A DNA stretch of 64,000 bases from Candidatus Endonucleibacter sp. (ex Gigantidas childressi) (GTDB lineage: Bacteria > Pseudomonadota > Gammaproteobacteria > Pseudomonadales > Endozoicomonadaceae): NCBI GenBank assembly GCA_030674875.1, contig JASXSU010000003.1, forward strand, positions 660,076 through 724,075, read 5' to 3'. Positions 42,447 through 63,517 of the stretch are shown in pieces; the first letter of the stretch is position 1; each line of letters starts with the position of its first letter. Under the pieces are notes generated by a model. That model was not told the origin of the DNA and did no database searches. It was given only the letters and a program-made list of their open reading frames with translations. The translations under genes and the position numbers were made by a program.

Positions 42447-42562
42447 TCACCCTCGATGAGCTGTTAATACTTCATAGGTTTTTACTTCGTGATTGTAGCA
42501 AAAAACTAAGGGTATCGCAGTTCATATTTTTATTAAATTGGGTGTCGCACTTAGTATATTAA
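42447..42562. mobile_element. IS30-type left-end remnant
   Basis: A 115-bp stretch nearly identical to the left end of IS30 copy 1 (GATGAGCTGTTAATACTTCA, then AACTAAGGGTATCGCAGTTC and GTCGCACTTAGTATATTAAT). The element's outer edge lies about 25 bases before the start codon of the next gene, so it may supply promoter sequence. Confidence 0.75.
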
Positions 42563-42588
42563 TTCGGCAAGTATTAAAGGAGATAATA

Positions 42589-43494
42589 ATGAAAGATATA
42601 TTCAATGCAGGGAATTATTTTACTCAGTATGCAGGGGGGCAGTCAAACGTTACTGATACTGTGGGTAAAACTTTAGGAGATTGGGGGGCACGATCAGTTG
42701 AAGCATTAAAATTGGCTAAAAACTATGTTTCGGATGGAGCATCTTCGTTTAGTGGTTATCTTCCTAGTTTTGTTTCTTCGGCTTGCGCTGTTATTGCACC
42801 TTTCGTGCCTAGCGCGCCTGTTCTCGGTGTGGCTGTTGTGTGTGGAGGTATTGCCTTGTATTATAGAAGAGCTGCCAACAAGGCTAATAACGAGCTACTA
42901 ATGACAAAAACTATCAATCAGCAGAGTGTGCAGGCTGTGCAGGCTCTACGGACGCAGATGAACGAATTAGGGGAAGTAGTTAAGAAACAAGAGCAGAGCA
43001 TGACGGAAGCTACAAGTGGATGGCGTGCAGACGAGGAGAAAAGGGCGTTAGCATTAGCTGCTAAAAAAGAAGAGGATCTACAGTTGGAATTATCCAGAAA
43101 TGCTGAACGTGTGAATGAAAAAAAGGAAATGCAGGAGAAGTTGAATCTGCAGATAGAAGCGAATACCAAATTGAAAGAAGAAATTAAGGTTATATCTGAG
43201 GCTGCACATAAACCTATATCTAATAAGACGCCAACAGATAAACCTAAATCTCAGTTTACTACGGTAGGGTCTAAGAGAGGTAGTTCTGCAAATACAACCT
43301 TCGCGTCTCAGTCAGGAAATGTTGTTGATTTATTTGGAACTTTGGGTAATTTTAATGCAGCATATTCATATCCGGTAGCTTATCCTGCGGCTTATCCTAC
43401 GGCTTATCCTATGGCTTATCCTATGGCTTATCCTATGGCTTATCCTATGGGTTATCCTATGGGTTATCCTATGGGTTATGCTGCATGGTACTGA
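42589..43494 (+). CDS. Hypothetical protein with coiled coil and YP-repeat tail
   Basis: No family recognised; 301 residues from the ATG at 42589, which has AAAGGAG six bases upstream. A hydrophobic stretch (about residues 60-90, FVPSAPVLGVAVVCGGIALY) could span a membrane and is followed by a basic YYRRAANK. A long Lys/Glu/Gln-rich helix (about 95-205) is probably a coiled coil. The C-terminus has nine four-residue units of the form (M/V/A/T)(A/G)YP and ends GYAAWY. Tails of this type can mediate self-association. It is monocistronic and surrounded by mobile DNA. Confidence 0.7.
   Translation: MKDIFNAGNYFTQYAGGQSNVTDTVGKTLGDWGARSVEALKLAKNYVSDGASSFSGYLPSFVSSACAVIAPFVPSAPVLGVAVVCGGIALYYRRAANKANNELLMTKTINQQSVQAVQALRTQMNELGEVVKKQEQSMTEATSGWRADEEKRALALAAKKEEDLQLELSRNAERVNEKKEMQEKLNLQIEANTKLKEEIKVISEAAHKPISNKTPTDKPKSQFTTVGSKRGSSANTTFASQSGNVVDLFGTLGNFNAAYSYPVAYPAAYPTAYPMAYPMAYPMAYPMGYPMGYPMGYAAWY
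43375..43482 (+). repeat. 12-bp tandem repeat, nine units
   Basis: Nine in-frame copies of a unit like ATGGCTTATCCT, encoding MAYP, VAYP, AAYP, TAYP and MGYP variants. The central MAYP and MGYP units are almost identical in DNA, so copy number probably changes by slippage without breaking the frame. Confidence 0.9.
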
Positions 43495-51737: not shown

Positions 51738-52617
<880 letters not shown>

Positions 52618-56346: not shown

Positions 56347-57699
56347 TTGTTGTTGAGAAGCACTATTTATCAGCGTGTTTGGCGGTTTGCCTGGCCTGCT
56401 ATCATTTCAAACATCTCCGTACCTCTAATGGGGCTAGTGGATTCGGCGATTCTTGGCCACCTGCCATCGGCAGAGTATCTTGGCGGTGTAGCCATTGGAG
56501 CTACTATTTTTAGTTTTTTGTTCTGGGCTTTTGGTTTCCTACGAATGGGAACGACAGGATTGGTTGCTCAAGCCTATGGTCGAGGGGATCATGATGCCTT
56601 AGGTCAATGGTTATTGCAGTCTGTAATTTTGGCGTTAATGATTGGGCTGGTGATTGTTATTTTGTCACCGCTGATTATTGACCCAGTTTTATCTTTATTT
56701 GGTGGCAGTAAGCAGGTATCGGAGCAAGCTCGTATTTATTTTGAGATTAGAATTTTTTCAACACCTGCCGTGTTATGTAATTATGTAGTGGTCGGCTGGT
56801 TATTAGGGGTACAGAAACCAAAAGGGCCGCTGGTTATACTGGTGGTTGCTAATAGCGTAAATATTCTTTTAGACTTGCTATTAGTGCTCAAACTAGGTAT
56901 GGCCACGGAAGGAGCTGCAGCGGCGACGGTGATTGCTGATTATGTCGGTTTAAGTTTAGGGTTGCTATTAATTTGGAAGTGGCGAAAGATTTGTGGCAAC
57001 TTTGAACGAATGCTTGATTGGGCAAGGCTAATAGATCTCAGTGCCTTTAAAAAACTATTGTTGCTAAACCGACATTTATTTGTCCGAACTTTATGTCTAT
57101 TATTTGTTCAGGCTTTTTTTACCGCCGCAGGGGCTAAGCAAGGGGATGAAGTGTTGGCAGCAAATGCGTTACTGCTGAACTTGTTAGTGTTTATCTCTAA
57201 TGGCCTAGATGGCTTTGCACATGCTGCCGAGGCTATGGTTGGAGAGGCTCTGGGGCAAAAAAAACTGAAGAAGTTCAGATGCATCGTTATGGTAACAGGC
57301 TATTTTTCTATGATTTTTGGTCTGTTGCTTATGCTATTGCTTGCAGTGGGAGGTGTTTGGTTGCTGGGCATTATGACAAACATTGCCGAGGTAAGGGATA
57401 TATCCAGAATTTATTTACCTTGGCTGATCGCTACACCGCTGATTGCGGTATGGTGTTATTGGCTAGACGGCATTTTTATTGGCGCATTAGAATCCCGAAT
57501 AATGCAACATACTGCGATAATAGCTACAATCGGCGTATTCTTGCCCTGTTGGTATGCAGCCCAAGCACTAGGGAATCATGGTTTATGGCTGGCTTATAGC
57601 TTATTTATGGCTGCCAGAGGTATTGGGCTACTGCTGGCTTATCGATGGCTCGACGTTAGAAATAGCTGGCGATTGGCGGGTGGCATAGATGGGAAATAA
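56347..57699 (+). CDS. MATE-family efflux transporter (DinF-like)
   Basis: A 450-residue protein with twelve membrane helices in two MATE repeats. FAWPAIISNISVPLMGLVDS with AILGHL at the start and FRMGTTGLVAQAYGRGDHDA match the DinF branch. It should export cationic drugs or oxidising compounds against a cation gradient. Translation probably begins at one of three consecutive TTG codons (56347-56355) behind GGCGGAG. Its end overlaps the TusA-like gene by 11 bases. Confidence 0.88.
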   Translation: MLLRSTIYQRVWRFAWPAIISNISVPLMGLVDSAILGHLPSAEYLGGVAIGATIFSFLFWAFGFLRMGTTGLVAQAYGRGDHDALGQWLLQSVILALMIGLVIVILSPLIIDPVLSLFGGSKQVSEQARIYFEIRIFSTPAVLCNYVVVGWLLGVQKPKGPLVILVVANSVNILLDLLLVLKLGMATEGAAAATVIADYVGLSLGLLLIWKWRKICGNFERMLDWARLIDLSAFKKLLLLNRHLFVRTLCLLFVQAFFTAAGAKQGDEVLAANALLLNLLVFISNGLDGFAHAAEAMVGEALGQKKLKKFRCIVMVTGYFSMIFGLLLMLLLAVGGVWLLGIMTNIAEVRDISRIYLPWLIATPLIAVWCYWLDGIFIGALESRIMQHTAIIATIGVFLPCWYAAQALGNHGLWLAYSLFMAARGIGLLLAYRWLDVRNSWRLAGGIDGK

Positions 57700-57967
57700 A
57701 TCTTCACATTCTGGTGTAGATATTTTATTAGAAACCATTGAAGTTAATCATGAACTGGATACCTCTGGGTTGTGTTGCCCAGAACCAGTGATGCTACTGC
57801 ACAAGAAAGTGCAGGAAATGGTATCGGGAGAGGTAGTACGAGTTATTGCTACCGATCCATCAACGCAAAGGGATATCCCCAAATTCTGTATTTTCTTGAA
57901 TCACTACCTATTAAAGAGTGAAGAACAGGAAAATCATTTTTACTACGTGATCAAAAAAGTATCGTGA
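57689..57967 (+). CDS. TusA-family sulfur-carrier protein
   Basis: A 92-residue protein with the TusA/SirA motif LDTSGLCCPEPVMLLHKKV. The sulfur-carrying Cys is Cys30 (C-P-x-P). A short N-terminal extension of about 18 residues precedes the usual start. It overlaps the MATE gene, so the two are translationally coupled. Roles in this family are sulfur transfer for tRNA thiolation or molybdenum cofactor work. As no tusBCD genes are visible, the partner is unknown. Confidence 0.88.
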   Translation: MGNKSSHSGVDILLETIEVNHELDTSGLCCPEPVMLLHKKVQEMVSGEVVRVIATDPSTQRDIPKFCIFLNHYLLKSEEQENHFYYVIKKVS

Positions 57968-57989
57968 ACACAGAGGCTGTACAATTGTC

Positions 57990-58117
57990 TATACCCAAAG
58001 CATTTCAAATTACTGCTAGGCAGTAAGTAAGCGAAGCCCCTTGAGCCTACGAGTAGTAGGTGGTTTGGGTGAGCGAACGCAGCCAACAATGTAGCAAATT
58101 GAAAGGAGACGGGTATA
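57990..58117. repeat. Miniature element type A, copy A8
   Basis: A 128-bp copy, TATACCCAAAGCATTTCAAA to GAGACGGGTATA, beginning 23 bases after the tusA-like stop. It is directly joined to a partial type B copy that runs to about 58200. Confidence 0.85.
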
Positions 58118-58206
58118 TACCCACCACCCCCTTGAAGATGTGTAGCTGTTGATTTATCTAACTCACCCCAATTACACCTACTACTCGTAGGATCATGGCT
58201 CTTTTT

Positions 58207-58230
58207 GTCCTTAATTGATAAATTAAGGAC
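58207..58230. terminator. Perfect 10-bp hairpin
   Basis: GTCCTTAATT and AATTAAGGAC with a GATA loop. It could terminate transcripts from the tusA side or mark the edge of the IS fragment that follows. No T-run follows, so a simple terminator role is uncertain. Confidence 0.35.
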
Positions 58231-58410
58231 ATTAATTATCGCTTGGAGTGGCTACGGACATCGTTTGATCGTAAAAGTGTAGTAAGCGACTTATGTACTG
58301 TACAAAAAACTTTAAGCTATTTATTTGCAAGGCATAATTAGTATGAGGTGACTCCCAGATAAGGTAACCTGCACGATCTTTTATCCCAGAATAGGTTACG
58401 GTTGTTGAAC

Positions 58411-58560
58411 ATGAAAGACGTAAGTTCATTGGCTGAGAAGCTTAAGGATCATCTGCCCTGCATCAAGCTCGAATCATCTTCATTGCACAGTGTGTAATGG
58501 CCTTACTGCGTATCCGTTCCGCTAATATTCTGATTGAATAAAAGAGACGTTAACATATTT
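58411..58560 (+). pseudogene. Transposase N-terminal remnant (IS4-like)
   Basis: In overlapping frames the DNA reads SSLAEKLKDHLPC and then HQARIIFIAQCVMALLRIRS followed by ANILIE and a stop. This resembles the N-terminus of IS4-group transposases, which begin with a helix that scans the DNA ends. It is short, frameshifted and not functional. Confidence 0.45.
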
Positions 58561-58693
58561 GCAGATTGTTACTGGCTTGTCTTACACATAAAAATGACTA
58601 CTTACATTTACTTCCCCGTGATGTTTTATTACCATCCATGCTTTGTTAGATGCAAGAGATAAAAAAAGAGGTATAACCTTAGTATTCTAAAAT

Positions 58694-59260
58694 ATGGATA
58701 GAAGGGCGGTAGTGTTTTTGGGTATATTAAGTTCCCTCCCCTTTACAATACTCTACCCTCAACAGTTAAGGTATACAGCTTACCATAATGTTTGTTTTTG
58801 TATTTCTTTGCATGCCTTTATGTTAAAGATAGATCATTATGCAGTTTATTCTAATCGTAAAAAGGACGCCATGAAAGTTTGGTTCATTCAGCAGCTTCTA
58901 AAGTATTCTTGTTCCCATTTTATATCAGATTTCGAGAAATGCTTATATCAAAGATTCTATTGTTTAGTAGAAAAGGCGCTCCGTAGTCGTTTTGACAATT
59001 CGTATATCGCTGGCAGAGATTACGTTGGCAACGTGTTGAAAGCCAAGTTTATAAAGCCATCCCGTAGGAGCAGAGGCAACAATGAAAGGTCTCGAAAGCA
59101 TCAATTTGATTACTTTGAGTTGACGTCTATCTATCTTGCATTCGAGTTTTGTAATGTGCATGGAGAGAATCCTGCCGACAGTTATAGTGGTAGCGATGAT
59201 TGGAAGTTAGGATGCTTGTGGGCAATAATACACTTAGATAGCCCACCAAGAACACCCTAA
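58694..59260 (+). CDS. Tandem-array protein, copy 1, 5'-truncated
   Basis: The first of four related genes. From about position 58782 (NVCFCISLHAF) to the end (DSPPRTP) its 158 residues align without gaps to copies 2-4. The preceding 30 residues (MDRRAVVFLGILSS...) are unrelated to the others. About 130 residues of the family's N-terminal half, including the normal signal peptide, are missing. The substitute start is basic then hydrophobic and might by chance serve as a signal. Probably a remnant made by deletion next to the IS4-like fragment. Confidence 0.6.
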   Translation: MDRRAVVFLGILSSLPFTILYPQQLRYTAYHNVCFCISLHAFMLKIDHYAVYSNRKKDAMKVWFIQQLLKYSCSHFISDFEKCLYQRFYCLVEKALRSRFDNSYIAGRDYVGNVLKAKFIKPSRRSRGNNERSRKHQFDYFELTSIYLAFEFCNVHGENPADSYSGSDDWKLGCLWAIIHLDSPPRTP

Positions 59261-59468
59261 AGCTAAGAAGCTAGATATGTTCAGCATGAGTAATGTTGAT
59301 TGCATAATAGGCCTAAGAGTCTACATGATAATGGAAAATATTTACTCTCAGGGTCTATTTGATAGATCCTTGTTGCATAATTAAATAGTTCTATAGAGTA
59401 GTTAATTTTTATTTTTAATAGAAATGCTTGTGCAATGTTCATTCATCAATAAAAATATAGTTCTGTTT
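59261..59468 (+). repeat. Conserved spacer unit of the tandem array
   Basis: The same spacer of about 210 bases follows copies 1, 2 (60324-60538) and 3 (61394-61600), with only a few differences, including a small duplication of CTAAGAAG after copy 2. It contains an imperfect hairpin (GGGTCTAT-TTG-ATAGATCC). The shared repeat unit is therefore gene plus spacer, 1062 to 1070 bases long. Any promoter for each copy must lie here. Confidence 0.8.
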
Positions 59469-60323
59469 ATGCTAATAAACAATCTTGTTAGAGTTATCTT
59501 CATGTTCTTATGCATTAGTGCTACAGCATTCTCTACTCCTACTTTAAAGATAGCTAGTGTAGAAGGCTTTAAAGCAAGGAAGCTAGGTATATTTAGTATG
59601 GATGATTTTGAAATAAAATTATGCGCCGTTGTTAGGGGAGTAAGTTCTACGTCATCGCATAATAGACCTCAGACCGTATATGAGTTCATTCAATTATGTA
59701 ATAGAAATTATGATTCTAATGATCATAACTCAGGGTGGAAAAAGTATTTAGCAAATAGACCCCCAGAGACAGATTCAGGCTGTTTCAATGATATAGCAGT
59801 AAGTGTAGTATATTCAGCATTTAAAGAACTCGGGGTGCATGAGCAGTATAATGTTTGTTTTTGTCTTTCTTTGTATGCCGTTATGTCAAAGATAGATTAT
59901 TATGCATTTTATCGTAATCGTGAAAAGGACGCCTTGAAAGTTTGGTTCATTCAGCAGCTTCTAAAGTATTCTTGTTCCCATTTTATAGCAGATTCCGAGG
60001 AATGCTTATATCAAAGCTTCTATTATTTAGTAGAAGAGGCGCTCCTTAGTCGTTTGGACAATTCGTTTATCGATGGCAGAGATTACGTTTACAACGTGTT
60101 GACAGCCAAGTTTATAAAGCCATCACGTAGGCGCAGAGGCAACAAGGAAAGGTCTAGAAAGCATCAGTTTGATTACTTTGAGTTGATGACTATCTATCTT
60201 GTATTCCATTTTTTTAATATGTATGGAGAGAGTCCTGCTGACAGTTATCTTGGTAGCGATGAGTGCAGGTTAAGATGCTTGTGGACAATAATACACTTCG
60301 ATAGCCCACCAAAAATACCCTAA
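59469..60323 (+). CDS. Tandem-array secreted protein, copy 2
   Basis: A 284-residue protein of no recognised family, from the ATG at 59469 (MLINNLVRV). A signal peptide is clear (FMFLCISATAFS or nearby cleavage). The mature part is about 260 residues with several conserved Cys (CAVV, IQLCN, SGCFND, NVCFC, YSCSH, EECLYQ), consistent with disulfides outside the cytoplasm. A very basic stretch (KPSRRRRGNKERSRKH) precedes an acidic, aromatic C-terminus. Compared with copy 3, residues between the signal and NVCFC are almost identical, while the middle (YYAFYRNREKDAL) varies. Confidence 0.75.
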   Translation: MLINNLVRVIFMFLCISATAFSTPTLKIASVEGFKARKLGIFSMDDFEIKLCAVVRGVSSTSSHNRPQTVYEFIQLCNRNYDSNDHNSGWKKYLANRPPETDSGCFNDIAVSVVYSAFKELGVHEQYNVCFCLSLYAVMSKIDYYAFYRNREKDALKVWFIQQLLKYSCSHFIADSEECLYQSFYYLVEEALLSRLDNSFIDGRDYVYNVLTAKFIKPSRRRRGNKERSRKHQFDYFELMTIYLVFHFFNMYGESPADSYLGSDECRLRCLWTIIHFDSPPKIP

Positions 60324-60538
60324 AGCTAAGAAGCTAAGAAGCTAGATCTGTTCAGCATGAGTAATGTTGATTGCATAATAGGCCTAAGAGTCTACATGAT
60401 AATGGAAAATATTTACTCTCAGGGTCTATTTGATAGATCCTTGTTACATAATTAAATAGTTCTATAGAGTAGTTAATTTTTATTTTTAATAGAAATGCTT
60501 GTACAATGTTCATTCATCAATAAAATATGGTTCTGTTT

Positions 60539-61393
60539 ATGCTAATAAACAATCTTGTTAGAGTTACTTGCATGTTCTTATGCATCAGTGCTACAGCATC
60601 AGCTACTCCTACTTTAAAAATAGCTAGTGTAGAAGGCTTTAAAGCAAGGAAACTAGGTCTGTTTAGTATGGATGATTTTGAAATAAAATTATGCGCCTTT
60701 GTTAGGGGAGTAAGTTCTACGTCATCGCATAATAGACCTCAGACCGTATATGAGTTTATTCAATTATGTAATAGAAATTATGATTCTAATGATCATAACT
60801 CAGGGTGGAAAAAGTATTTAGCAAATAGACCCCCAGAGACAGATTCAGGCTGTTTCAATGATATAGCAGTAAGTGTAGTATATTCAGCATTTAAAGAACT
60901 CGGGGTGCATGAGCAGTATAATGTTTGTTTTTGTCTTTCTTTGCATGACTTTATGTCAAAGATAGATCGTTATGTATTTTATCCTGATCATAACAAGGAC
61001 GCCATGAAAGTTTGGTTCATTCAGCAGCTTCTAAAGTATTCTTGTTCCCATTTTATAGCAGATTTCGAGAAATGCTTATATCAAAGATTCTATTGTTTAG
61101 TAGAAAAGGCGCTCCGTAGTCGTTTTGACAATTCGTTTATCGCTGGCAGAGATTACGTTAACAACGTGTTGAAAGCCAAGTTTATAAAGCCATCACGTAG
61201 GCGCAGAGGCAATAATGAAAGGTCTAGAAAGCATCAATTTGATTACTCTGAGTTGACGTCTATCTATCTTGCATTCGAGTTTTTTAATGTGCATGGAGAG
61301 AGTCCTGCTGACAGTTATAGTGGTAGCGATGATTGGAAGTTAGGATGGTTGTGGACAATAATACACTCAGATAGCCCACCAAGAACACCCTAA
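60539..61393 (+). CDS. Tandem-array secreted protein, copy 3
   Basis: A 284-residue paralogue with the signal peptide MLINNLVRVTCMFLCISATA ending SA before TPTLKIAS. An in-frame ATG 12 bases upstream is possible, but copy 2 lacks it. It has the same Cys positions, the same basic block (KPSRRRRGNNERSRKH) and the same C-terminal SDSPPRTP as the other copies. The variable patch here reads DRYVFYPDHNKDAM. It lies 215 bases after copy 2 with a nearly identical spacer. Function unknown; a secreted host- or competitor-directed role is plausible from duplication and signal peptide only. Confidence 0.78.
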   Translation: MLINNLVRVTCMFLCISATASATPTLKIASVEGFKARKLGLFSMDDFEIKLCAFVRGVSSTSSHNRPQTVYEFIQLCNRNYDSNDHNSGWKKYLANRPPETDSGCFNDIAVSVVYSAFKELGVHEQYNVCFCLSLHDFMSKIDRYVFYPDHNKDAMKVWFIQQLLKYSCSHFIADFEKCLYQRFYCLVEKALRSRFDNSFIAGRDYVNNVLKAKFIKPSRRRRGNNERSRKHQFDYSELTSIYLAFEFFNVHGESPADSYSGSDDWKLGWLWTIIHSDSPPRTP

Positions 61394-61600
61394 AGCTAAG
61401 AAGCTAGATCTGTTCAGCATGAGTAATGTTGATTGCATAATAGGCCTAAGAGTCTACATGATAATGGAAAATATTTACTCTCAGGGTCTATTTGATAGAT
61501 CCTTGTTACATAATTAAATAGTTCTATAGAGTAGTTAATCTTTATTTTTAATAGAAATGCTTGTACAGTGTTCATTCATCAATAAAATATGGTTCTGTTT

Positions 61601-62455
61601 ATGCTAATAAACAATCTTGTTAGAGTTACTTGCATGTTCTTATGCATCAGTGCTACGGCATCAGCTACTCCTACTTTAAATATAGCTAGTGTAGAAGGCT
61701 TTAAAGCAAAGAAGATAGGTCTGTTTAGGAATGCTTTTGAAGTAAAATTTTGCGCCGTTGTTAGTGGAGTAAGTCCTAGGTCATCGCATAATAGACCTCA
61801 GACCGTATATGAGTTCATTCAATTATGTAGTAGAAATTATGATTCTAATGATCATAACTCAGGGTGGACAAAGTATTTAGCAAATAAACCCCCAGAGACA
61901 GATTCAGGCTGTTTCAATGATATAGCAGTAAATGTAGTATATTCAGCATTTAAAGAACTCGGGGTGCATGAGCAGTATAATGTTTGTTTTTGTATTTCTT
62001 TGCATGACTTTATGTCAAAGATAGATCATCATGAAATTTATGCTGATCATAAAAAGGACGCCATGAAAGTTTGGTTCATTCAGCAGCTTCTAAAGTATTC
62101 TCGTTACCGTTGTATATCAGATTTCGATAAATGCTTATATCAAAAATTCTATTGTTTAGTAGAAAAGGAGCTCCGTAGTCGTTTTGACTATTCGTTTATC
62201 GATGGCAGAGATTACGTTGCCAGCGTGTTGAAAGCCAAGTTTATAAAGCCATCACGTAGGAGCAGAGGCAACAATGAAAGGTGGTCTCGAAAGCATCAAT
62301 TTGATTACTTTGAGTTGACGTCTATCTATCTTGCATTCGAGTTTTTTAATATGTATGGAGAGAGTCCTGCTAACAGTTATCTTGGTAGCGATGATAGCAA
62401 GTTAAGATGCTTGTGGAGAATAATGCAATTATATAGCCCACCAAGAACACCCTAA
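61601..62455 (+). CDS. Tandem-array secreted protein, copy 4
   Basis: The last paralogue, 284 residues, and the most diverged of the three full copies. After the same signal peptide it reads TPTLNIASVEGFKAKKIGLF and then lacks about one residue in the MDDFEI region. The Cys set is kept except in the middle, where SRYRC replaces SCSH. It contains one extra Trp in the basic block (NNERWSRKH). The variable patch is DHHEIYADHKKDAM. The following spacer matches the others for about 70 bases and then ends abruptly near 62525. Confidence 0.78.
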   Translation: MLINNLVRVTCMFLCISATASATPTLNIASVEGFKAKKIGLFRNAFEVKFCAVVSGVSPRSSHNRPQTVYEFIQLCSRNYDSNDHNSGWTKYLANKPPETDSGCFNDIAVNVVYSAFKELGVHEQYNVCFCISLHDFMSKIDHHEIYADHKKDAMKVWFIQQLLKYSRYRCISDFDKCLYQKFYCLVEKELRSRFDYSFIDGRDYVASVLKAKFIKPSRRSRGNNERWSRKHQFDYFELTSIYLAFEFFNMYGESPANSYLGSDDSKLRCLWRIMQLYSPPRTP

Positions 62456-62674
62456 AGCTAAGAAGCTAGATCTGTTCAGCATGAGTAATGTTGATTGCAT
62501 AATAGACCTAAGAGTCTATATGATAATTTGATAGATTGTTCTTTTGCCAGCTGGCTTCTTTAAAAACGTACTAAATCGATCATTTACAAGCATAAATCAT
62601 CTATTTTAGTGCGTGTTTTCCTCACCGACTAACAAAATTACGGCTCGTGCAAAGGTCTCAGTTATCTAAAAAAA
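62456..62674. other. Array end and join to cassette region
   Basis: The first 70 bases match the array spacer, then the similarity stops. The rest (AT-rich, with TTAGTGCGTGTTTTCCTCAC) shows no gene. Confidence 0.45.
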
Positions 62675-62775
62675 GCTTAACAAAACGTGCAACCGGACTC
62701 CGCAAACCGTCATCCTTTTTGCTAAAAGAGCAAAAAAGCTGCCAGTTCGCTCCGGCGGTTCACTTGCCGTTATGC
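62675..62775. other. Integron attC-like recombination site
   Basis: A 101-base imperfect palindrome. The left arm GCTTAACAAAACGTGCAACC and the reverse complement of the right arm, GCATAACGGCAAGTGAACCG, align with an extra unpaired base, as in attC sites. The left R box GCTTAAC fits RYYYAAC. The right box GTTATGC deviates at one position from GTTRRRY. The length suits attC. No integrase gene lies in the window. Confidence 0.55.
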
Positions 62776-62892
62776 GTAAAAAATAATGAGTTACAGATGG
62801 TAGGAATTTACGAAGATGGAGCGTATCTTGATAATAACCATTCATGCTTTCTGCAGATTACTAGGCTGCAGTGTTTGCTCGAATAGTTTGTT

Positions 62893-63018
62893 GCTAAAGG
62901 CTGGCTTTATGCGCATACGCTGAGCCGCACCACCGCTGGGCTGCGTTTGTGTTCTCAAGCTGGGAGTACACAAATCATTCCACCTGACCGCTTACGCGTC
63001 AGGTAAATTCAGGCGTTA
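62893..63018. other. Second attC-like site, weaker
   Basis: From GCTAAAGGCTGGCTTT to AAATTCAGGCGTTAGAG, the outer arms pair imperfectly (CTAA.G.CTG against its complement) and an inner palindrome CCTGA-C-CGC-TTAC-GCG-TCAGG is present. GCGTTAG is the usual attC end, but the left box lacks AAC. It lies 16 bases before the signal-peptidase-like gene. The 117 bases between the two sites hold only a short frame (MVGIYEDGAYLDNNHSCFLQ...), perhaps a cassette remnant. Confidence 0.4.
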
Positions 63019-63034
63019 GAGTATAAGGAAGACT

Positions 63035-63517
63035 ATGAAAAAGTTTATTATTGCCGCAATTGCGTTTATAGGTGCAATTTACTTTATACCTAAGATGCTT
63101 GGGTATGGAGTAGTACAGAACCCAAGTGGGAGCATGAGACCAACTATTGAAATAGGAAGCTATATTCTGGTCGATTGGAATGCATTTAACGATTCCATGC
63201 CAGAAACAAATGACTTAGTTTTATTCAAGTACTCAGATAATCCTAATGAGAGCATGATTGGGAGGGCGATAGGGCTGCCTGATGAGACAGTGAAAATAGA
63301 AAATGGAATAACTTATGTGTCAGGAAAGGCGATAGAGCAAAGCTATATCCAAGATAGCTTCAATACACACCATAGTTCATTAACGTTTCCTGAAATCACT
63401 ATCCCGAGTGAAGGTGTTTTTGTTATGGGTGATGCTCGAGATCTTAGTAATGATAGTCGTTATAAAGGCCCTGTAAGAGCACAAAATGTAATTGGAAAAA
63501 TTATCAAAGTATTCTAG
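63035..63517 (+). CDS. Signal peptidase I-like protein without the usual lysine
   Basis: A 160-residue S26-family protein with one N-terminal membrane helix (residues 3-19). The catalytic Ser33 is in the normal NPSGSMRPT motif. Box E (MGDARDLSNDSR, 131-142) is conserved. In box D, where active bacterial enzymes have KRxxGLPGD with the Lys as general base, this protein reads GRAIGLPDE (76-84), so the Lys is Gly76. It is much shorter than housekeeping LepB (about 320 residues). It has its own ribosome site (AAGGAAG) and follows an attC-like site, suggesting a gene-cassette origin. Confidence 0.8.
   Translation: MKKFIIAAIAFIGAIYFIPKMLGYGVVQNPSGSMRPTIEIGSYILVDWNAFNDSMPETNDLVLFKYSDNPNESMIGRAIGLPDETVKIENGITYVSGKAIEQSYIQDSFNTHHSSLTFPEITIPSEGVFVMGDARDLSNDSRYKGPVRAQNVIGKIIKVF

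What the first reader, a model, noticed from the sequence alone, without database searches (positions are those of the whole stretch)
58694..62455. Tandem array of four paralogous, unrecognised secreted proteins
Three full-length genes and one truncated copy lie head to tail with a unit of 1062-1070 bases. Each full copy has a signal peptide with Ala-x-Ala cleavage, a conserved set of cysteines, a strongly basic block (KPSRRRRGNNERSRKH) and a conserved end (DSPPRTP). I recognise no domain. Large parts are nearly identical in DNA between copies while a patch near the middle (YVFYPDHNKD, YAFYRNREKD, HEIYADHKKD, YAVYSNRKKD) differs at many positions. That mosaic resembles families of exported proteins under diversifying selection with gene conversion. 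In a probable animal symbiont such proteins could face the host. The sequence shows the array; the host-facing role is inference.
Basis: partly seen in the sequence, partly recalled or inferred. Interest (0 to 1): 0.78.

Follow-up and report, generated by a model that had tools for sequence, protein, structure and literature searches.

The report
Fast-diverging exported protein tandem array
A bacterium that is probably a parasite of marine animals carries side-by-side copies of a probably exported protein with no known relatives, and the second half of that protein seems to have been driven by selection to differ between copies, as expected of proteins that meet a changing partner such as the host.

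Summary
The array is real: three full genes and one 5'-truncated copy head to tail (spacing 1063, 1070, 1059-1062), with no further member found in the genome. No copy reaches a Pfam cut-off; NCBIfam and PDB give nothing, PHROGs and PADLOC only weak, inconsistent hits. No credible homologue was found in the sampled relatives, family, order and class. New here is selection. In the C-terminal half, pairs of full copies differ by 36-52 amino-acid-changing and 2-2.5 silent changes (dN/dS 4.2-6.5). A codon model gives omega 3.7-4.8 there (2dlnL 12-16) and 0.85 in the N-terminal half; M2a against M1a gives 2dlnL 23.6. Two other duplicated genes of this genome stay well below 1. Protein change is therefore very probably selected; gene conversion has modest support. 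The genome has 28 BIR-domain matches, which fits 'Ca. Endonucleobacter', an intranuclear mussel parasite; the name is inferred. Export was judged by eye, and a host-facing role is the best explanation but untested. Structure prediction could not be completed. Interest 0.5.

The parts
58785..59260 (+). copy 1: 3' part of an array gene (157 residues from NVCFC to the end), without signal peptide and N-terminal half; the open frame is extended upstream to 58694 by repeat sequence
59424..60323 (+). copy 2: full-length, signal peptide (by eye) ending AFS|TP
60527..61393 (+). copy 3: full-length, 288 aa, signal peptide (by eye) ending ASA|TP
61589..62455 (+). copy 4: full-length, 288 aa; one 3-base deletion and one 3-base insertion against the others, frame kept
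59261..59456 (+). spacer 1-2 (to the codon in register with the start of copy 3), GC 29%, 3 and 5 differences in 195 from the other two spacers
60324..60526 (+). spacer 2-3, with an 8-base direct duplication (AGCTAAGA)
61394..61588 (+). spacer 3-4
62456..62528 (+). last partial spacer; array homology ends here
60920..61393 (+). C-terminal half of copy 3 (codon-alignment columns 132-289), the region with omega 3.7-4.8; the same region is 59850-60323 in copy 2, 61979-62455 in copy 4 and 58787-59260 in copy 1
58113..58790 (.). dispersed repeat sequence next to copy 1; four other places hold 324-679 bases of it at 90-91% identity, each match ending at 58790
62768..62964 (.). dispersed repeat downstream of the array (92% over 198 bases in locus L016)
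63035..63517 (+). small S26 signal peptidase, one of two in the genome; neighbour, link to the array not shown

Best explanation
The array encodes a lineage-specific family of exported, cysteine-containing, basic proteins of about 30.7 kDa (mature), made by a bacterium very probably of the 'Ca. Endonucleobacter' kind (Endozoicomonadaceae; name inferred). Shown: the tandem array, a less varied N-terminal half, and selection for amino-acid change in the C-terminal half with the reading frame kept. Seen by eye only: Sec-type signal peptides. Inferred: the copies arose by unequal recombination at an AT-rich, repeat-bounded site; the N-terminal half is a common scaffold and the C-terminal half a recognition surface; the proteins cross the inner membrane by Sec and the outer membrane by the type II system (a GspD is present in the genome) and act on a host factor or host defence that itself varies, so several divergent copies are kept at once. 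The constant basic block (KPSRRRRGNNERSRKH) would be a functional anchor, for instance for nucleic acid or nuclear targeting; this is the weakest step.
For: C-half nonsynonymous/synonymous changes 41.5/2.5, 52/2 and 36/2 in the three full pairs, dN/dS 4.2-6.5. M0 omega 3.69-4.76 on three topologies, 2dlnL against omega 1 of 12.2-16.4; N-half 0.85, not different from 1. M1a/M2a 2dlnL 23.6, 21% of sites at omega 7.3. Odds of change at C-half nonsynonymous sites are 6-10 times those at spacer sites, P 6e-6 to 3e-5. Both coding indels are of 3 bases; spacer indels are of 1 and 8 bases. Control pairs in the same genome: TusA 10 silent changes in 59 sites and 4 changing in 217; MATE fragment 11 in 129 and 15 in 411. 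No other open frame of 60 aa or more overlaps copies 2-4. 28 BIR matches in the own genome, 0 in 14 control genomes; apoptosis inhibitors of 'Ca. Endonucleobacter' are in print (PMC11521996: abstract, part 1 of 3 of the Results, the Discussion and Genome assembly sections, and found passages seen). GspD over its curated cut-off (513.7 against 351.35 bits).
Against: No data on expression, localisation or partner. Variable C-half columns are not significantly more hydrophilic than constant ones (mean -0.76 against -0.26, P 0.47), so a surface patch is not shown. The pair copy 1/copy 3 is not significant alone (4 silent of 25, P 0.1-0.43). The pairs are not independent, and recombination between copies, which is suspected here, can inflate site-model tests. 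Copy 2 lacks the exact Ala-x-Ala. Only four sequences from one genome; no second strain. Selection by phages or rival bacteria would look alike.
Confidence: 0.52

Rival explanations
1. Periplasmic immunity proteins: a tandem set of diverged immunity genes against toxins of rival bacteria; signal peptides place them in the periplasm, and selection follows changing toxins.
For: Arrays of diverged immunity genes exist in polymorphic toxin systems (recalled). Signal peptide by eye and positive selection fit.
Against: The three nearest neighbours that were scanned are MATE, TusA and an S26 peptidase; no toxin gene was noticed by eye in the window frames or in 19 kb downstream, but most of those frames were not searched against families. 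PHROGs and PADLOC gave no hit shared between copies.
Confidence: 0.14
2. Surface or secreted antigens diversified against phages or extracellular host immunity, not effectors that act on the host cell.
For: Same selection pattern; conserved cysteines suit an oxidising extracellular setting.
Against: No lipobox and no membrane anchor after the signal peptide were noticed by eye; mature proteins are mildly hydrophilic (gravy -0.35 to -0.5).
Confidence: 0.14
3. Silent-cassette system: the 5'-less copy 1 and the other copies serve as donors for gene conversion into one expressed copy, giving antigenic variation.
For: Copy 1 has only the variable half; clustering of site patterns P 0.023 (0.035 with one site per codon; 0.026 for single-copy changes over the whole length); copies 2 and 3 share a 186-base identical run, reached in 0 of 5000 permutations.
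Against: Each full copy has its own start, signal peptide and upstream spacer. The truncation of copy 1 is explained by a dispersed repeat. The longest identical runs of the other two pairs are not unusual (P 0.16 and 0.40), and the 186-base run lies in the half that varies less anyway.
Confidence: 0.1
4. Non-functional or relaxed ORFs drifting neutrally, so that the pattern is noise or an artefact.
For: Orphan family, one copy truncated, repeat-rich site; few differences and only four sequences.
Against: Omega 1 is rejected in the C-half and M1a by M2a; three frames stay open with only 3-base indels; two control gene pairs behave normally. Assembly could not be checked against reads.
Confidence: 0.06

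Closest known systems
Host-derived inhibitors of apoptosis (IAP/BIR proteins) of 'Ca. Endonucleobacter' (PMC11521996)
   Same: Probably the same kind of organism (28 BIR matches here); a multigene family with a proposed host-interaction role.
   Different: IAPs have known domains and are reported to come from the host by transfer; array proteins reach no Pfam cut-off.
Tandem, rapidly evolving secreted effector or antigen families of pathogens and symbionts (as a general kind, recalled)
   Same: Tandem paralogues, signal peptide by eye, conserved frame, omega above 1 concentrated in one half.
   Different: No sequence relation to any was found here; partner and export beyond Sec not shown.
Ets-domain proteins of the same bacterial family
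   Same: A weak profile hit (E 0.2) from the array alignment led to one of them in G001.
   Different: Array proteins do not match an Ets profile built from 19 loci: hmmsearch scores -0.8 to -1.4; an earlier hhalign gave probability 0.2 but its Ets alignment held one wrong-strand row of ten. Not related.

Membership tests
Tandem exported paralogue family under diversifying selection | head-to-tail paralogues | tested here: met
Tandem exported paralogue family under diversifying selection | N-terminal signal peptide in each full copy | tested here: inconclusive
   by reading only: hydrophobic stretch with AxA in copies 3 and 4, AFS in copy 2; no predictor available
Tandem exported paralogue family under diversifying selection | omega above 1 by codon model | tested here: met
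   (own implementation), pairwise; five of six pairs significant, copy 1/copy 3 not
Tandem exported paralogue family under diversifying selection | gene conversion between copies | tested here: inconclusive
   clustering P 0.023-0.035; long identical run in one of three pairs
Host-targeted effector | delivery to host and a host target | not testable with these tools
   GspD in the genome only shows that a route may exist
Ets-domain protein | match to an Ets profile | tested here: not met
   Pfam; own profile
Periplasmic immunity array | adjacent toxin gene | tested here: inconclusive
   none among three scanned neighbours or noticed by eye; not every ORF was scanned
Diversity-generating retroelement target | changes concentrated at template adenines | tested here: inconclusive
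   variable base sets of 74 C-half columns: AG 19, AC 14, CT 14, GT 12, CG 5, AT 5, three-base sets 5; not adenine-limited, but no template or reverse transcriptase was searched for

The most novel reading that the evidence does not exclude
The C-terminal half is a hypervariable recognition module of a previously undescribed effector family of an intranuclear parasite, kept as several simultaneously expressed variants in an arms race with a nuclear or gill-cell target of the host, with the constant basic block giving nuclear or nucleic-acid retention.
Probability: 0.25. Interest if true: 0.75.

Novelty: new member of a known kind. Interest (0 to 1): 0.5.

Why it matters
Few intranuclear bacteria of animals are known, and little is known of their host-facing proteins beyond apoptosis inhibitors (general knowledge). 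A family whose omega, averaged over 158 codons, is about 4 is unusual and gives a sequence-based pointer to an interface with a changing partner. It names proteins and regions that can be tested by expression and binding even if the organism is not cultured. If the partner is not the host, the same array would point to conflict with phages or other bacteria.

Tried and rejected
Known domains: Pfam, NCBIfam, PHROGs, PADLOC and PDB profile searches gave nothing over a curated cut-off. The weak values differ from copy to copy: phrog_1967 E 0.0095 (copy 4), phrog_18352 E 0.019 and phrog_9012 E 0.085 (copy 2), PDC-S02 E 0.0067, Herpes_UL20 E 0.064 and Zn_ribbon_PADR1 E 0.1 (copy 1), HHD_RTEL1 E 0.13-0.16 (copy 3).

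Distant relatives: outside the own genome, 4 of 36 family genomes gave weak hits (E 0.13-0.32). By eye of the frames, one lies antisense to an ABC permease gene, two in flavin oxidoreductase genes, and one in a G001 protein with an Ets domain. In the order sample, 4 of 389 other genomes had weak hits at E 6.3e-4 to 0.046, the best with three stops inside; taken as chance after reading the frames. Class sample: 0 of 368 others at E 0.001. Relatives by single protein: 0 of 56 others. Genome contigs by short patterns of one copy and viral contigs by patterns of the alignment: stretches matched but none was a relative; plasmids and phages by tblastn: none. The genome sets overlap, and order and class were sampled.

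Ets relation: followed because of a motif seen by eye (RRRGNN before a Yxx[IL] stretch in a second G001 Ets protein); rejected. The first try left out 6 of 16 loci and held one wrong-strand row, so one search replaces it. In one search, L096 was likewise read on the wrong strand.

Overlapping reading frame as cause of the high omega: the one other frame of 60 aa or more is a 65-aa antisense frame in copy 1.

Naming the organism: a scan with the topoisomerase III protein returned 46 named loci, best 57% identity, none titled Endozoicomonas or a named kin. Family and genus names are inferred from BIR content.

Foreign origin by composition: GC of the copies is 0.365-0.382 against a mean of 0.432 (minimum 0.380) in 17 chosen window genes, but GC3 is 0.319-0.382 against a mean of 0.366, so no clear signal.

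Promoters and terminators in 57960-63100: 15 and 2 found, no more than in shuffles. Rfam on the window: no match.
Full report
What is there. Four related open frames stand head to tail on the + strand at 58694-59260, 59424-60323, 60527-61393 and 61589-62455, with direct-repeat spacing of 1063, 1070 and 1059-1062 bases. Against copy 3, the mature proteins are 81% (copy 4), 85% (copy 2) and, for the 157 residues left, 87% (copy 1) identical. A DNA search of the own genome (3,679,278 bases, 12 contigs) with copy 1, its spacer and the start of copy 2 finds the four copies; besides them only the first 97 bases of the copy-1 frame match, at four further places. A profile search finds the same four and no more at E up to 1.

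Copy 1 is a fusion. The 97 bases are the end of dispersed repeat sequence: 57960-58800 gives 70 matches in the genome, itself included, and four other places match at 90-91% over 324-679 bases, each match ending at 58790. The join to the array carries the word ATAATG, shared by both sides. So copy 1 lacks the signal peptide and N-terminal half, and its start codon lies in repeat sequence. The neighbouring MATE 3' part and TusA (57014-57997) are duplicated, 95% identical, on contig C2, and another repeat lies downstream at 62768-62964. In G001, of the same genus, MATE and TusA are followed directly by a gene whose counterpart in this window lies about 50 kb away; no array is there.

No known family. 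No copy reaches a curated cut-off in Pfam; NCBIfam gives nothing, a PDB profile search nothing, PHROGs and PADLOC only weak hits that differ from copy to copy. No credible homologue was found in 57 relatives, 37 family genomes, 390 order genomes or 369 class genomes. Each of these sets includes the own genome, the only accepted hit; they overlap, and order and class are samples. The weak hits that I set aside as chance are listed in Tried and rejected; the strongest is E 6.3e-4 in one of 390 genomes, with three stops inside. Pattern-based scans of two contig collections and tblastn of phage and plasmid records found no relative. A close sister of the window's organism may not be held, so 'species-specific' is not shown.

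Selection. This is the main result. Nei-Gojobori counts in the C-terminal half (alignment columns 132-289) are, nonsynonymous to synonymous, 41.5/2.5 for copies 2-3, 52/2 for 2-4, 36/2 for 3-4, 44/4 for 1-2, 35/2 for 1-4 and 21/4 for 1-3. In the N-half they are 8/6, 22/4 and 16/3 for the three full pairs. With neutral expectations that allow for transition bias from 1 to 8, five of the six C-half pairs have too few silent changes at P below 0.03 in every setting; pair 1-3 does not (P 0.1-0.43), and no N-half pair does. The pairs are not independent. A codon model gives omega 3.69-4.76 in the C-half on the three possible trees, 2dlnL 12.2-16.4 against omega 1; the N-half gives 0.85, not different from 1 (one tree); the whole gene 2.28-2.59. 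M2a over M1a: 2dlnL 23.6, with 21% of sites at omega 7.3 (my own implementation, one tree; recombination can inflate such tests). Spacers differ by only 2-5 in 195 bases between copies, against 36-52 amino-acid-changing differences in about 382 C-half sites. Two other duplicated genes of this genome behave ordinarily: TusA 10 silent in 59 and 4 changing in 217 sites, a MATE fragment 11 in 129 and 15 in 411. Both coding indels are of three bases, those of the spacers of one and eight. A constrained overlapping frame could mimic high omega; no other open frame of 60 aa or more overlaps copies 2-4.

Mosaic. Fourteen two-against-two columns in the C-half support all three groupings and are clustered (5 pattern changes, 8.7 expected, P 0.023; one site per codon P 0.035); single-copy changes over the whole length are clustered as well (P 0.026). 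Copies 2 and 3 share a 186-base identical run, reached in 0 of 5000 permutations; the longest runs of pairs 2-4 and 3-4 are not unusual (P 0.16 and 0.40). Uneven constraint along the gene can add to all of these, so gene conversion is plausible but not proven.

Anatomy. Six cysteine columns of the mature part are common to the three full copies; others vary. The basic block is nearly constant. Of 59 variable C-half columns, 23 differ in charge; variable columns are not significantly more hydrophilic than constant ones (P 0.47), a result against a simple surface patch. Mature full proteins are 30.6-30.8 kDa with pI 8.0-8.9.

Organism. No call names it. The own genome has 28 BIR matches (PF00653) in, by my count of the listed frames, 12 open frames; 14 control genomes have none. 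'Ca. Endonucleobacter' species, intranuclear parasites of deep-sea mussels in Endozoicomonadaceae, are reported to have 7-13 inhibitors of apoptosis (PMC11521996; abstract, part 1 of 3 of the Results, Discussion and Genome assembly sections, and found passages seen). The same paper lists such genes in some Endozoicomonas, so the identification is likely, not certain. The terms 'hypothetical', 'unknown function', 'duplicat' and 'positive selection' do not occur in its main text; its supplements were not read, so it may list these genes there.

Export and role. The signal peptides were read by eye. A GspD over its curated cut-off is present, so a Sec plus type II route may exist; other type II genes were not searched. 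The small S26 peptidase 580 bases downstream is one of two in the genome, but a link is not shown. I take export followed by contact with a variable host factor as most likely (0.52), with immunity proteins, surface antigens and a silent-cassette system as rivals. Structure prediction, which could have decided between some of these, failed and was then switched off.

Novelty. I found no report of this family. Literature searches made: 'Endonucleobacter' (9 papers listed), 'Endozoicomonas' with 'ETS domain', 'Endozoicomonadaceae' with 'positive selection' (an unrelated paper listed) and one general search on tandem diversifying effectors (one Chlamydiae paper listed, not read). The kind of thing, tandem exported paralogues under diversifying selection, is known (recalled); the family is new to the libraries searched here.

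Noticed in passing
L023:796-1911 (G001), also loci L107-L122: Ets DNA-binding domain (PF00178) in 15 of 37 genomes of the window's family (not in the own genome) and 0 of 14 controls; the G001 protein (E 1.1e-10) has a signal-peptide-like start by eye. An Ets domain in coral Endozoicomonas is already in print (PMC9743535, passages seen).
   Followed up: partly
window 52281-52354: Perfect AGAAGAC heptanucleotide repeat, 10.6 copies, between what look like rpsI and the cytochrome bc1 iron-sulfur gene (named by eye); possibly a variable-length tract.
   Followed up: no
window 43378-43479: 12-base repeat, 8.5 copies, coding an AYPM/GYPM tail in a protein at 42538-43494.
   Followed up: no
window 57960-58790: Very abundant dispersed repeat sequence: 70 matches in the genome, 34 of the rows covering about 220-245 bases near query 333-566 at 83-87% identity; only 40 of 520 first-look candidates were scored.
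   Followed up: partly
window 57014-57997 and G000:C2:418230-419182: 3' part of the MATE gene with TusA is duplicated on another contig, 95% identical.
   Followed up: partly
L126:15246-16481: A BIR-domain protein frame of 411 aa lies about 16 kb downstream of the array.
   Followed up: no
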